From Comamonadaceae bacterium (GTDB taxonomy: Bacteria; Pseudomonadota; Gammaproteobacteria; Burkholderiales; Burkholderiaceae_C), in assembly GCA_947442105.1 (NCBI GenBank), contig CANEVH010000018.1, forward strand, positions 1-64,000: 64,000 nucleotides of DNA, read 5' to 3'. Under the pieces are notes generated by a model. That model was given only the letters and a program-made list of their open reading frames with translations, was not told where the DNA came from and made no database searches. Shown in pieces: positions 58,685 through 63,949 of this stretch. Numbering within the stretch: position 1 is the stretch's first letter; each line of letters starts with the position of its first letter. The position numbers and the translations under genes are program-made.

Positions 58685-60354
58685 GCGCGCGCACGCCAGC
58701 TGAGACTGGCCCTCCGGGTCCTCCTGCCCCTACCAGCGCCAGCGCCCAGTCCCGCACCGGCATGGTGACCAGCCCGCACGCGCTGGCCACGCAGGCCGGT
58801 GTGGACGTGCTCAGCGGCGGCGGCAACGCCATTGAAGCCGCCATTGCCACCGTGGCCTGCCTGGGCGTCACCTACCCGCACTTTTGCGGCTGGGGCGGCG
58901 ACGTGCTCATGCTGGTGGCCGACGCGCAGGGCCAGGTGCAAAGCATCTCGGGCATTGGCCAGGCCGCGCAAAACGTGCATGGCTATAGCGGCACCATCCC
59001 CACGCGCGGACCACGCTCGGCGCTCACCACGGCGGGCGCCGCCGACGCACTGGGCCAGGCCTTGGACATCAGCCGCAAGGCGTGGGGCGGCACACGCACT
59101 TGGGCCGACTTGCTCGCGCCCTCCATCGCGCTGGCGCGTGAAGGCTTTGAAGTGACCGCGTCCGAGCGCTTTTGGCTGGACTTTCGCCGCCCCGAAGCTG
59201 CCGCGCTGGCCGGCGTGTTTGGCGCCTTTTCTGAGCACGGGCAGGCCCCTCCGCCGGGCGCGGTGCGCAAACAGCCGCTTTTGGCGCGCACGCTGGAGAA
59301 GCTGGCCGCGCACGGCCCGCGCGCGATGTACGAGGGCCGGTTGGCAGAGCACATTGCCCAAGGCCTGGCCGATGCAGGCTCGCCCCTGACCCTGGCCGAT
59401 TTGGCCCGCACCCGCGCCCGCGTAGAAGCGCCGCTGGCGGTGGACTACCGGGGCGGCACACTGCTGGCGCACCCACCCCCCACCCAGGGCCTGACCACGC
59501 TGCAAATCATGGGCGTGCTGGAGCGTTTTGACCTGTCAAAAATCGCCCAAGGCAGCGCCGACCACTACCACCTGCTGGTAGAGGCCACCAAGCAAGCCTT
59601 TATGGACCGCAATCGCTACCTGGCAGACCCCGAGTTTGTGGACGTGCCCAGCGCACGTTTGCTCTCACGCCAGCACCTGGACGCCCTGGCCGCGCGCATC
59701 CGCATGGCGCAGGCCCTGCCCTGGCCGCAACCGTTTCAGACCGGCGACACGGTTTACGTGGGCGCCATGGACGCGCATGGCAACGCGGTGTCGCTGCTGG
59801 CCACGGTGTATTACGACTGGGGCAGCGGCGTGGTGGTGGGCGACACCGGCTTGCTGTGGCACAACCGGGGCGCATCCTTCTCGTTGGACCCGCAGCACCC
59901 CAACCGCCTGGCGCCGGGCAAGCGCCCTTTTCATACCCTGAACCCCGGCATCTACCGCAAAGACGGGCGCACCCGCATGGTCTACGGCACCCAAGGCGCC
60001 GACGGCCAGCCGCAAACGCTGGCGGCAGTGCTAACCCGACTGATTGACTACGGCATGGACCCGCTCGCTGCCCTGGCGCAGCCGCGCTTTTTGCTGGGCA
60101 AAACCTTCTCGGACGCGCGCGACTCGCTCAAGCTAGAAGACGACGTGCCCCTGGCGGTGCGCGAGGACCTGGCCACGCGCGGACACGCCATCAGCACGGT
60201 CGCAGCGCTTAGCCCATTGATGGGCCACCCTGGCGCCATCGTGCGGGACGCCACGAGCGACATATTGCGGGGCGCGCATGACCCGCGCAGTGATGGATGC
60301 GCCTTGGGGCTTGGTGGGGCTGGTATGTTTTCTAAGCTGCCTACGCGGCAGTGA
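58681..60354 (+). CDS. Gamma-glutamyltransferase-like Ntn hydrolase, 3' end fused to CRISPR repeat
   Basis: 557 residues from an ATG overlapping the previous stop. MVTSPHALATQAGVDVLSGGGNAIEAAIATVA is the conserved start of the large subunit; no signal peptide, so cytoplasmic, unlike periplasmic GGT. The autoprocessing Thr lies in GDTVYVGAMDAHGNAVSLL, the start of the small subunit. ATGCGADGQP-like TQGADGQPQTLA and HDPRSDGCALGL close the domain. After this natural end the frame runs on through GGAGM into FSKLPTRQ, encoded by the first CRISPR repeat, where it stops. It may hydrolyse a gamma-glutamyl or oxamate-like amide together with the deacetylase. Confidence 0.85.
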   Translation: MSARTPAETGPPGPPAPTSASAQSRTGMVTSPHALATQAGVDVLSGGGNAIEAAIATVACLGVTYPHFCGWGGDVLMLVADAQGQVQSISGIGQAAQNVHGYSGTIPTRGPRSALTTAGAADALGQALDISRKAWGGTRTWADLLAPSIALAREGFEVTASERFWLDFRRPEAAALAGVFGAFSEHGQAPPPGAVRKQPLLARTLEKLAAHGPRAMYEGRLAEHIAQGLADAGSPLTLADLARTRARVEAPLAVDYRGGTLLAHPPPTQGLTTLQIMGVLERFDLSKIAQGSADHYHLLVEATKQAFMDRNRYLADPEFVDVPSARLLSRQHLDALAARIRMAQALPWPQPFQTGDTVYVGAMDAHGNAVSLLATVYYDWGSGVVVGDTGLLWHNRGASFSLDPQHPNRLAPGKRPFHTLNPGIYRKDGRTRMVYGTQGADGQPQTLAAVLTRLIDYGMDPLAALAQPRFLLGKTFSDARDSLKLEDDVPLAVREDLATRGHAISTVAALSPLMGHPGAIVRDATSDILRGAHDPRSDGCALGLGGAGMFSKLPTRQ

Positions 60355-62216
60355 ACCATGGGTGTTTATCCCTCTTTAATGCGGGTGCTTTCTAAGCTGC
60401 CTACGCGGCAGTGAACCCAGTCCGCACCCACATAGCAGTTTCTGGATTTTTCTAAGCTGCCTACGCGGCAGTGAACTCGGTCGCCCTGGTGGAGGCAAGC
60501 TGCCTAATTTTCTAAGCTGCCTACGCGGCAGTGAACGGCGCTATTTCTGCGAACGTGCCTTTGAGTTTTTTCTAAGCTGCCTACGCGGCAGTGAACCTCG
60601 CCCTTCTCCCCCTCCGTAGTCTCGCGGTTTTCTAAGCTGCCTACGCGGCAGTGAACAGCCCGTCGATCCGGATCAGCGGTGTGTTTAATTTCTAAGCTGC
60701 CTACGCGGCAGTGAACGCTAAATTTCACGCGCGGAAAGCGCTTTTTAATTTCTAAGCTGCCTACGCGGCAGTGAACGCTGAGCCGCCACGCATGCAGGGC
60801 GAGATCAATTTCTAAGCTGCCTACGCGGCAGTGAACGCGGCCATGGTGGCGGCATGCGCTGCCACCATTTTCTAAGCTGCCTACGCGGCAGTGAACATTG
60901 CGCCTGCTTTGTCAGCATCGCGCGCCATTTTCTAAGCTGCCTACGCGGCAGTGAACAGCGCAGCACCTGGTCCTTGGTCTTGCCGTGCTTTCTAAGCTGC
61001 CTACGCGGCAGTGAACGATAAGCACGCTGGGCTTCATTTGCCGATAGCTTTCTAAGCTGCCTACGCGGCAGTGAACTTTGCCACGGCTTTTGGCGTGCGC
61101 CGCAAGATTTTCTAAGCTGCCTACGCGGCAGTGAACCCGGGCAGCCAGGCGATGATGGGCTCGGTGATTTTCTAAGCTGCCTACGCGGCAGTGAACAAGG
61201 GCAGCATGACTGCGGCGCCCGCACCAAATTTCTAAGCTGCCTACGCGGCAGTGAACGATCGGGTCGCTGGCCTGGCGCAAAGCTTTCCTTTCTAAGCTGC
61301 CTACGCGGCAGTGAACTTTTCCAAGCGCAAAAAAACAATATTTTTATATTTCTAAGCTGCCTACGCGGCAGTGAACCAGCCTGTGAACCGACTCCTTCAT
61401 CGACTTTTTTTCTAAGCTGCCTACGCGGCAGTGAACTGTGAGCGACGTATTTGAGGTAGACCCGGCGCTTTCTAAGCTGCCTACGCGGCAGTGAACGCTC
61501 ACCCGCCAGCCCCGCGCCCTTGCGCCCATTTCTAAGCTGCCTACGCGGCAGTGAACACAAGCGAGGACATTGTGAGCCTGTCCCCGTTTTTCTAAGCTGC
61601 CTACGCGGCAGTGAACAACCCTCATTATGGAAATGATTTTTCGTTTATTTTCTAAGCTGCCTACGCGGCAGTGAACTCGAGTCATGTTCATGGCCGGGGC
61701 CTTTGGGTTTTCTAAGCTGCCTACGCGGCAGTGAACCCAGTGGCGCCTGCTGGGTGGCCCGTGCTTTGTTTCTAAGCTGCCTACGCGGCAGTGAACCTTC
61801 TTTTTATGTCGGCTTTAACCCTCATTATTTTCTAAGCTGCCTACGCGGCAGTGAACTCTTGGGCTGTTGCCCGTGCGCTGATTTTGAATTTCTAAGCTGC
61901 CTACGCGGCAGTGAACGCCCGAGCCGGTCTGCGCTACTTTCTCAAGTTTTTCTAAGCTGCCTACGCGGCAGTGAACCAGCAGCATCATCTTCTGCACGTC
62001 GCCGCTGTTTTCTAAGCTGCCTACGCGGCAGTGAACACAGTCCCCAAAATTTGCAGCACGATGCGTATTTTCTAAGCTGCCTACGCGGCAGTGAACGTTG
62101 GCTACAGCGGAGCCCGGTACCTCACGCATTTCTAAGCTGCCTACGCGGCAGTGAACTGCCGCCCCCGTCATTGTCTGAGCGCCTTCACTTTCTAAGCTGC
62201 CTACGCGGCAGTGAAC
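60329..62216 (-). CRISPR. Type I-F CRISPR array, 32 repeats and 31 spacers
   Basis: Thirty-two 28-bp repeats at exact 60-bp spacing, all identical as far as I can read, separated by 31 spacers of exactly 32 bp. On the plus strand the repeat starts TTTCTAAGCTGCC and ends GGCAGTGAAC; read on the minus strand it is the I-F type GTTCACTGCCG...GGCAG with CTTAGAAA as the 8-nt crRNA 5' handle. CTGCC/GGCAG is the Cas6f hairpin. Transcription is toward low coordinates, from the leader next to cas6f, so the newest spacer is at 62157-62188 and the oldest at 60357-60388. No terminal repeat is degenerate. Confidence 0.99.
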
Positions 62217-62344
62217 TAGCCGTCTTGTCCGCTAAGTCCTTGTTCCAGAAACATTTTTCCGGCTTTTCCCCTGCACCCCATCTGAAATTACAGGCGCGCA
62301 AGTCCTTATCAATCAAGCACTTACGCGGCCCCGCAAAAAAAGGG
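62217..62344 (-). promoter_or_regulatory. CRISPR leader
   Basis: 128 nt between the cas6f stop and the first (leader-proximal) repeat, in the position where I-F arrays have their promoter and integration-host-factor-dependent leader. T-rich stretches such as ACATTTTTCCGGCTTTTCCC are present. I could not assign -35/-10 boxes or an IHF site with confidence. Confidence 0.65.
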
Positions 62345-62905
62345 TCAAAACCACGGCACCGTGGCGGTCGCGCTCAGGCCATAGGTGTTGAACGTGCCAC
62401 TGGCTGGGGCGCTGGCGGTCTGGCAACGAAGGAACAAGCGAAACGTCTGGGTGGTGCTGGCGCTGCGCAGCACCACAAAGGGCAGTGCCAGCAGCTCGGC
62501 GCAACTGTCTGGCACGCGGGCGCGTGCCTCGTCTTCGGTCAGACCGTGACGCTTCATTTGTCGTCGGCGCAGGCGTTCGGGGTTGCTTTTGGCCTGCACG
62601 CGGCTCAAGCGCCGGTAGCCCACTTGTGGCGGCACGGCGGCCACGGCCGATGTGTGAAGGTGGTCTTGCAGGCCACCCAGCCATGGCAAGGCCAGAAGCC
62701 GAAGCAAGTCAGCCTCCGGCCCCACCACGCGCAAGCTATTGCCCAGGCTGGCAGGTTTTTCTGTATAGCCCGGAAAGCTCACGCCCAGAGTGCTGCTATC
62801 TAGCTGCACCAGCGCCAGATGCAGCTTGGCGTACAGTGCGGCCATCAATTGGTGCGGCGCAGTTTCGGGGTCATGCCGCAAAAGAATGTCCAAGTAATGC
62901 GACAT
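62345..62905 (-). CDS. cas6f: CRISPR RNA endoribonuclease Cas6/Csy4, type I-F
   Basis: 186 residues, the standard Csy4 length. MSHYLDILLRHDPETAPHQL, GVSFPGYTEK, the Arg-rich helix YRRLSRVQAKSNPERLRRRQ and C-terminal TYGLSATATVPWF match Pseudomonas Csy4 position by position. His29 (AKLHLAL) is the catalytic His. The conserved Ser lies in VLRSASTTQTF. It cuts each repeat at the base of the hairpin and stays bound to the crRNA. An AAGGAG site embedded in the end of csy3 precedes the ATG; the genes are 6 nt apart. Confidence 0.97.
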   Translation of the reverse strand: MSHYLDILLRHDPETAPHQLMAALYAKLHLALVQLDSSTLGVSFPGYTEKPASLGNSLRVVGPEADLLRLLALPWLGGLQDHLHTSAVAAVPPQVGYRRLSRVQAKSNPERLRRRQMKRHGLTEDEARARVPDSCAELLALPFVVLRSASTTQTFRLFLRCQTASAPASGTFNTYGLSATATVPWF

Positions 62906-62911
62906 AGGTCT

Positions 62912-63949
62912 TTACTCCTTACCAGCGTCGCCAAACACCCCGCCACGGATGAGGGTCGCCATCACAAAGTGCTGCTGCTCGGCGGCGGGCACTTTGTCTT
63001 TAAGTATCCAGCCGTCCAACAGGTTGTAGAAGTCCAGCTTGTCCGTGGGGCGGCGGCAGGCCTTGCCTAAAGTGGTCACCGAACCGTAGGGCTCCACCGC
63101 AATGGGGCCAAGCTCTTCCACGTCGGGGTGCCAGGTGTCTATGGTGCGAATGGCGTTGCCCAGCTTTTGCGAGTGGATGCCAGCTACGCCGTTGACCACG
63201 TACAGCGTTTTGCTTTTGCCGCTGCTGCCCTTGTCCAAAATCAGCTCCTGTGATGGGTAGACCTCTTGCCCTGCACCCATGCGCGCAAACGCCGTCACTT
63301 GCAGCAGCACATGGCTGGCGCCGGCCAAACCCTGGGCGATTAGCCCACCCAGTTCGTTAAGTGCATCTGCTGCGCCATCGGTGCCAAAGTTCCGCAGCGA
63401 CAGGCTGAGCGCGTCAAACGTCCACGTTTTTTGCGCAAGGCCTTGGACAAGATGCTGCACTTGCACCTCCACTTGCTCCGCACCCACGCGGTTGCGCCAC
63501 AGGAAGCGGCCATTGGCCAAGTTGTGCGCGTAACGTGATGCCAACTCACCAAAGCCAACGCCTTGCACATAGGCCTGCACCGTGCTGAGCAGCTTGGTTT
63601 GGTACGCAGCGCTGTTGCAGGCATTGGGCGTGCCTGCGCCGCCCAACACACGCAGGGTGAAGGTAGCTTTCAAAGTGTCTGCTTCGGCGGGCAAGGTAGC
63701 CACGTCAACAGTTTGGAGGTTGGGGTTTTCAATTGCCGCGTCCAGCTTGGCGGGGTCTTGGTCCTTGGTTTTGAGGCGGTTGGATATGGTGCCGCGCACC
63801 GACTTCTCACGCACGGTTACTGGCGTCCAGCCGCTTGCGTTAGCGCGCGCGCTCCAGCTGCCAGAAAAGAACACAGCGTCCGAAGGGTCAAGCTTGCGCT
63901 CAAAAGCCAAAACGGTTGCGGTCTTGAGGGTGTTGGTTGTAGTAGCCAT
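62912..63949 (-). CDS. csy3: Type I-F Cascade backbone subunit Csy3 (Cas7f)
   Basis: 345 residues, typical of Csy3. TATVLAFERKLDPSDAVFFSG, VTVREKSVRGTISNRLK, ANGRFLWRNRVGAEQVEVQV and LYVVNGVAGIHSQKLGNAIR are recognisable Csy3 blocks. Six copies coat the crRNA spacer in the surveillance complex. AAAGGAG lies about 8 nt before the ATG. Located between csy2 (cut by the edge) and cas6f, the canonical csy1-csy2-csy3-cas6f order. Confidence 0.96.
   Translation of the reverse strand: MATTTNTLKTATVLAFERKLDPSDAVFFSGSWSARANASGWTPVTVREKSVRGTISNRLKTKDQDPAKLDAAIENPNLQTVDVATLPAEADTLKATFTLRVLGGAGTPNACNSAAYQTKLLSTVQAYVQGVGFGELASRYAHNLANGRFLWRNRVGAEQVEVQVQHLVQGLAQKTWTFDALSLSLRNFGTDGAADALNELGGLIAQGLAGASHVLLQVTAFARMGAGQEVYPSQELILDKGSSGKSKTLYVVNGVAGIHSQKLGNAIRTIDTWHPDVEELGPIAVEPYGSVTTLGKACRRPTDKLDFYNLLDGWILKDKVPAAEQQHFVMATLIRGGVFGDAGKE

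What the first reader, a model, noticed from the sequence alone, without database searches (positions are those of the whole stretch)
61617..61828. Two CRISPR spacers overlap by 12 nt and reveal a CC PAM inside the array
The spacer at 61797-61828 ends with AACCCTCATTAT and the spacer at 61617-61648 begins with the same 12 bases, so both were taken from one strand of the same target, 20 nt apart. In crRNA sense the older spacer contains ATTTCC-ATAATGAGGGTT: the two bases just before the newer protospacer are CC, the known type I-F PAM. The newer one is nearer the leader, the order expected for primed adaptation against an invader already matched. The joined 52-nt sequence is a stronger probe for the target than either spacer.
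Basis: partly seen in the sequence, partly recalled or inferred. Interest (0 to 1): 0.75.

Follow-up and report, generated by a model that had tools for sequence, protein, structure and literature searches.

The report
Overlapping CRISPR spacers expose their PAM
Two entries in this bacterium's CRISPR memory were cut from the same stretch of an unknown invader, 20 letters apart, and a survey of other bacteria with the same kind of system shows that such re-sampling recurs, carries the expected recognition signal and has a preferred order.

Summary
Spacers S10 (61617-61648) and S7 (61797-61828) of a 31-spacer type I-F array share 12 nt end to start. CC, the I-F PAM, abuts S7 inside S10. None of 1500 shuffles reached a 12-nt overlap. 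The searches run found no target.

I surveyed 111 I-F loci (5428 spacers; window included). Exact same-strand overlaps of at least 11 nt occur in 22 pairs at 19 loci, and CC precedes the downstream member in 21 of 22. The older spacer is the upstream one in 17 of 22. In 6-8 nt overlaps with CC it is 22 of 30, against 71 of 140 without CC. Inexact overlaps reverse the order, 4 to 12 (Fisher p = 0.0026). This fits re-acquisition from returning targets altered over the older spacer's PAM and seed, and the window pair fits that class. Priming of this particular pair is inferred, not shown.

Cas2-3 appears split by an inserted element, so the array may now be frozen.

The parts
60329..62216 (-). 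Type I-F CRISPR array, 32 repeats of GTTCACTGCCGCGTAGGCAGCTTAGAAA (crRNA sense), 31 spacers of 32 nt
   Evidence: all 32 matches of this repeat in the genome (up to 3 mismatches) lie here
61617..61648 (-). Spacer S10 (older): ATAAACGAAAAATCATTTCCATAATGAGGGTT
61617..61628 (-). 12-nt overlap, 3' (PAM-distal) end of S10
   Evidence: exact 12-mer occurs in the 3.6-Mb assembly only here and in S7
61629..61630 (-). CC (I-F PAM) immediately 5' of the S7 protospacer, inside S10 (positions 19-20)
61797..61828 (-). Spacer S7 (newer): ATAATGAGGGTTAAAGCCGACATAAAAAGAAG
61817..61828 (-). 12-nt overlap, 5' (seed) end of S7
61677..61768 (-). Spacers S9 and S8 with the repeat between them, lying between S10 and S7; no target found
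   Evidence: phage searches gave only matches at E 0.9
62217..62344 (-). Leader between cas6f and the first repeat
   Evidence: polarity backed by 108 surveyed arrays of at least 10 spacers: repeat farthest from cas6f degenerate in 29, nearest in 0
62345..62905 (-). cas6f (csy4)
   Evidence: TIGR02563 162 bits, cut-off 36
62912..63949 (-). csy3 (cas7f); csy2, csy1 and the 3' part of cas2-3 follow on the same contig, partly or wholly beyond the window
   Evidence: TIGR02566 436 bits, cut-off 158; operon read in L034

Best explanation
S10 was taken first from a mobile element, AT-rich at least here. When that element or a close variant came back, recognition by the S10 crRNA, imperfect (priming) or perfect (interference-driven), led Cas1:Cas2-3 to take a second protospacer, S7, from the same strand 20 nt further from the S10 PAM, using a CC that lies inside the S10 protospacer. 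The new spacer's seed is thus built on the PAM-distal end of the old protospacer, away from the old PAM and seed where escape changes are expected. Shown: the shared 12 nt, the CC, the order in the array, and in the survey the CC rule, the order bias and its reversal in inexact overlaps. Inferred: that recognition by S10 caused the second capture, and that the target had changed at the S10 PAM or seed.
For: 12-nt end overlap with exact CC junction, 0 of 1500 shuffles reaching it. Survey of 111 I-F loci: CC in 21 of 22 exact overlaps, against a 5-6% base rate and 90-93% canonical PAM in laboratory I-F adaptation (PMC5059440). Older spacer upstream in 17 of 22 (set 1 8 of 11, window included; set 2 9 of 11), binomial p = 0.017; without the window pair 16 of 21, p = 0.027. 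Overlaps of 6-8 nt, a separate group of pairs: 22 of 30 with CC, 71 of 140 without (their direction counts had partly shown). Pooled CC pairs 39 of 51, p = 0.0002. Exact versus inexact by order 17:5 versus 4:12, Fisher p = 0.0026; 0.032 without L113 and L101. Eight of 22 pairs are array neighbours, 0.72 expected.
Against: The target was not found, so neither S10's own PAM nor an escape change can be seen. First captures in laboratory I-F priming prefer the other strand. Two unrelated-looking spacers separate S10 and S7. In set 2 alone the 6-8 nt order bias is not significant (7 of 10, p = 0.34). Five exact pairs run the other way. Inexact pairs are mostly further apart in the array, so elapsed time is a confounder, and 6 of the 12 newer-upstream inexact events come from two loci. 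Mismatch thresholds were chosen by me.
Confidence: 0.66

Rival explanations
1. Independent sampling: S10 and S7 were captured from the same or a related element on two unrelated occasions, because the AT-rich stretch is a capture hot spot, with no role for the S10 crRNA.
For: Naive I-F capture from a plasmid was biased towards transcribed and AT-rich regions (PMC5059440); both spacers are AT-rich and start with A; S8 and S9 lie between them. Exact plus inexact overlaps pooled are nearly balanced, 21 older-upstream to 17 newer-upstream, so placement itself need not be directional.
Against: Predicts no link between array order and exactness, but 17:5 against 4:12 is seen; array neighbours are over-represented, 8 against 0.72 expected.
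Confidence: 0.27
2. Cas2-3 geometry (a variant of the best explanation, not exclusive of it): after recognition by the older crRNA the PAM side of the protospacer is destroyed first, so an overlapping same-strand prespacer survives mainly on the PAM-distal side; no escape change is needed.
For: Array neighbours among exact pairs run 7 older-upstream to 1 newer-upstream (gap lists; p = 0.07); acquisition driven by interference is strong in I-F (PMC5059440).
Against: Does not predict that inexact overlaps reverse the order, 4:12.
Confidence: 0.3
3. Chance: two unrelated spacers happen to share 12 end bases.
For: Both are AT-rich, which raises chance matches: about 0.0008 expected over ordered pairs at this pair's composition.
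Against: 0 of 1500 shuffles; CC at the junction exactly; in the survey three control runs gave 0 exact overlaps. Between different loci 12-nt overlaps do occur, at a rate that predicts about 0.3 within loci in set 1, both strands, against 5 counted.
Confidence: 0.01

Closest known systems
Primed and interference-driven adaptation in type I-F (Pectobacterium atrosepticum; PMC4117759, PMC5059440)
   Same: Same subtype, mostly 32-nt spacers, GG/CC PAM in about nine of ten, new protospacers cluster near the recognised one; same-orientation ones fall on both sides.
   Different: Those are laboratory captures from known plasmids, with most first captures on the displaced strand. Here a same-strand overlapping pair is read from a natural array with no known target.
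Overlapping spacers in an archaeon with hyperactive uptake (PMC3468723, passages)
   Same: Spacers overlapping on one target, PAM-side ends fixed by a CCN motif.
   Different: Archaeal system under active uptake; the paper says overlapping spacers rarely occur in natural Sulfolobus arrays, while 19 of 111 I-F loci here hold at least one exact same-strand pair of 11 nt or more.
Competition between overlapping prespacers in E. coli primed adaptation (PMC6282206, passages)
   Same: Overlapping prespacers with an internal PAM interact in a direction-dependent way.
   Different: AAG PAM in E. coli; about which prespacer is used in one response, not the order of two spacers kept in one array.

Membership tests
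Type I-F (I-F1) CRISPR-Cas | csy1, csy2, csy3, cas6f effector genes | tested here: met
   TIGR02564, 02565, 02566, 02563 all above cut-off; PADLOC Cas8f, Cas5f, Cas7f, Cas6f
Type I-F (I-F1) CRISPR-Cas | cas1 and a fused cas2-3 | tested here: met
   cas1 on contig C50 (TIGR03637 497 bits). cas2-3 present but in two pieces on two contigs: profile 1-231 on C50 and 251-1110 on C18; an unbroken fused gene is not seen
Type I-F (I-F1) CRISPR-Cas | 28-nt I-F repeat and 32-nt spacers | tested here: met
   repeats of this type downstream of cas6f in 110 of 134 other loci fetched
Type I-F (I-F1) CRISPR-Cas | 5'-CC PAM (crRNA sense) | tested here: met
   CC at the S10/S7 junction; 21 of 22 in the survey. 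S10's own PAM unseen
Primed (or interference-driven) adaptation event | Newer spacer from the same element as an older one | tested here: met
   12-nt exact overlap plus CC; element itself not found
Primed (or interference-driven) adaptation event | Capture depends on recognition by the older crRNA | not testable with these tools
   Needs an experiment; the survey's order bias is indirect support
Primed (or interference-driven) adaptation event | Target escaped or mismatched at the older protospacer (priming in the strict sense) | not testable with these tools
   No target found
Primed (or interference-driven) adaptation event | Strand pattern of laboratory priming | tested here: inconclusive
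   S7 and S10 have the same orientation. First captures are mostly on the displaced strand, later ones in a series mostly on the primed strand (PMC5059440); S7's place in such a series is unknown

The most novel reading that the evidence does not exclude
Natural CRISPR arrays contain a target-free record of arms-race rounds. Where two spacers of one array overlap on one strand, the PAM of the downstream one is read from inside the upstream one. Exact overlaps sit with the newer spacer on the PAM-distal side, while a newer spacer that covers the older one's PAM and seed tends to come from an altered target. Arrays alone would then reveal PAMs and CRISPR-driven target change without any known virus.
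Probability: 0.5. Interest if true: 0.68.

Novelty: new member of a known kind. Interest (0 to 1): 0.45.

Why it matters
Many spacers have no known target (here, none was found for the five searched), which limits PAM inference and any test of priming in nature. Overlapping spacers give the PAM and the order of capture from the array alone: 21 of 22 overlaps carry CC, close to the laboratory PAM fidelity. The order asymmetry and its reversal for inexact overlaps, if it holds in a larger set, is evidence from wild genomes that I-F arrays re-sample returning targets changed at the old PAM or seed.

Tried and rejected
Target search: 52-nt composite by blastn in 50,697 phage and 72,556 plasmid records, only matches of E 3-4 over at most half the query. 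18-mer across the junction in viral contigs, 0; 15-mer, 12 stretches, none convincing, best 17 of 37 outer bases. Three open frames back-translated: one hit, L003, whose peptide match does not go past the searched core, and two with 0. 18-mer in genome contigs: two Anaerolineales places, 25 and 26 of 52 bases identical, rejected. 20-mer in 200 family genomes with up to 2 mismatches: only the window's own array. S8, S9, S15 and S7 alone in phages and S10 alone in plasmids: matches at E 0.3-0.9 or none. The other 26 spacers were not searched. A scan of viral contigs with csy3 did not bear on the target.

A special 20-nt shift was considered: 11 of 22 exact overlaps have shifts of 20-21 and one CC pair 22-23, but CC-filtered excess returns at 24-27. 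I treat it as unexplained, not as a rule.

Change of the older spacer's PAM in newer targets looked like a trend but was not formally tested and is not claimed. Pfam gave no family for the two short end peptides of the element in cas2-3 (one sub-threshold match at E 0.19); the kind of element is not established.

Survey limits: 54 loci fetched for set 1 of the places (weak, fragmentary or edge places left out), arrays in 49, plus the window; 80 fetched for set 2 of the places, arrays in 61. Only arrays within about 15 kb downstream of cas6f, many stretches cut by contig ends, only repeats within 8 substitutions of the window's, only spacers of 30-36 nt or exactly 32 nt. Two attempts at a further hold-out found 14 and 4 genomes and were not used.

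Full report
What is there. The window's right end holds a type I-F array on the minus strand, 60329-62216, with 32 identical repeats and 31 spacers of 32 nt. cas6f and csy3 lie beside it, then csy2, csy1 and part of cas2-3. The leader side is next to cas6f. Among 108 surveyed arrays of at least 10 spacers, the repeat farthest from cas6f is degenerate in 29 and the nearest in 0, so the cas6f side is the young end.

The pair. In crRNA sense S10 is ATAAACGAAAAATCATTTCC-ATAATGAGGGTT and S7 is ATAATGAGGGTT-AAAGCCGACATAAAAAGAAG. The next longest same-strand or tail-to-tail end overlap in the array is 5 nt. In 1500 shuffles of the spacers the longest was 10 nt. The composite has two CC dinucleotides, and one of them abuts S7 exactly. 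First bases of the 31 spacers are 16 A, 8 T, 6 G, 1 C, the 5' A/T bias and C avoidance described for I-F (PMC5059440), which agrees with the orientation used.

Target. None found in the searches listed under Tried and rejected. The exact overlap 12-mer occurs in the host assembly only in the two spacers.

Survey. Cas6f genes were located in 26 of 399 genomes of the order, 37 of 369 of the class and 91 of 234 of a second order; these samples overlap in a few genomes. DNA downstream was taken for 54 loci (set 1) and 80 loci (set 2). Arrays were found in 49 of 54 and 61 of 80; with the window this gives 111 loci and 5428 spacers. Exact same-strand end overlaps of at least 11 nt with a shift of at least 3 number 22, at 19 of 111 loci. 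CC precedes the downstream spacer in 21 and TC in one. Overlaps were found without regard to those two bases. A further exact pair shifted by 1 nt was left out. CC makes up 5-6% of dinucleotides in spacers. With the downstream spacer reversed (one run) or shuffled (two runs), there were 0 exact overlaps in each, and 0, 1 and 0 inexact ones. Opposite-strand exact overlaps of at least 11 nt number 12, 7 tail-to-tail and 5 head-to-head, fewer than the same-strand ones.

Order. The older spacer is upstream (5', PAM side) in 17 of 22: 8 of 11 in set 1, window included, and 9 of 11 in set 2. The tendency (5 of 7 pairs with shifts 19-21) was written down from set 1 before set 2 was fetched. A separate group, overlaps of 6-8 nt, gives 22 of 30 with CC and 71 of 140 without (Fisher p = 0.027); with CC by set, 15 of 20 and 7 of 10. 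About 8 of those 30 are expected by chance. Their direction counts had partly been displayed before the test. Inexact overlaps (1-3 mismatches, longer overlap required) form 17 events after merging duplicates: 12 with the newer spacer upstream, 4 with the older upstream, 1 ambiguous. Exactness and order are associated (Fisher p = 0.0026; 0.032 without L113 and L101). Exact and inexact together are nearly balanced, 21 to 17. So placement may be symmetric, while a newer spacer covering the older one's PAM and seed tends to come from an altered target. That is what escape followed by priming would leave. Time between captures is a confounder: inexact pairs are mostly further apart in the array.

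What this says about the window pair. S10 older and upstream, S7 newer and downstream, exact overlap and CC: it is a typical member of the majority class. Laboratory work leaves room for it: first I-F captures are mostly on the other strand (PMC5059440; PMC7056967), but later captures in a series are mostly on the primed strand, and same-orientation captures (42% of 105 in PMC4117759) occur on both sides. Re-acquisition driven by the older spacer is the best reading, but for one pair it stays an inference.

State of the system. cas2-3 is found in two pieces: profile 1-231 on contig C50, next to an open cas1 frame of 333 aa, and 251-1110 on C18. The C18 end is a repeated sequence with 19 matches in the assembly, itself included. 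The C50 end carries the same 15-nt terminal sequence in inverted orientation, as the other end of one element would; copies of the C50 end were not searched for. The simplest reading is an insertion in cas2-3, which would stop interference and capture and freeze the array. The assembly does not span it, so reads are needed.

Literature seen. PMC5059440: outline, Results, passages. PMC4117759: outline and three Results sections. PMC7056967, PMC6282206, PMC3468723, PMC4390879: passages only. A 2019 paper on bioinformatic evidence of widespread priming is recalled, not read; the listings showed only other papers that hold the phrase. In the listings of these searches I saw no report of the overlap-order pattern; most papers of subscription journals are not held.

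Noticed in passing
contig C18 69045-69174 (beyond the window, L034) and contig C50 end (L047): cas2-3 is split between two contigs. The C18 end is a sequence with 19 matches in the genome and the C50 end shares its 15-nt terminus in inverted orientation. Probable insertion in cas2-3; cas1 frame is open.
   Followed up: partly
surveyed I-F arrays (L092-L225): Shifts of 20-21 nt make up 11 of 22 exact overlaps, with one CC pair at 22-23 and an excess again at 24-27; CC position frequency in spacers shows no peak there.
   Followed up: partly
surveyed arrays L100, L149: Two of five head-to-head overlapping opposite-strand pairs read CT and AA where the older spacer's PAM should be, in the newer spacer's sequence: possible PAM escape seen inside an array.
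   Followed up: no
window 61317-61348: Spacer S15 is the most AT-rich (22% GC) in an array averaging 57%; it may come from the same AT-rich element as S7 and S10, but a phage search gave only a match at E 0.3.
   Followed up: partly
L049, L050 857-1861: Two viral-collection contigs of 11,369 bases encode a protein 71% identical to the window's csy3, so an I-F effector gene lies on contigs classed as viral.
   Followed up: no
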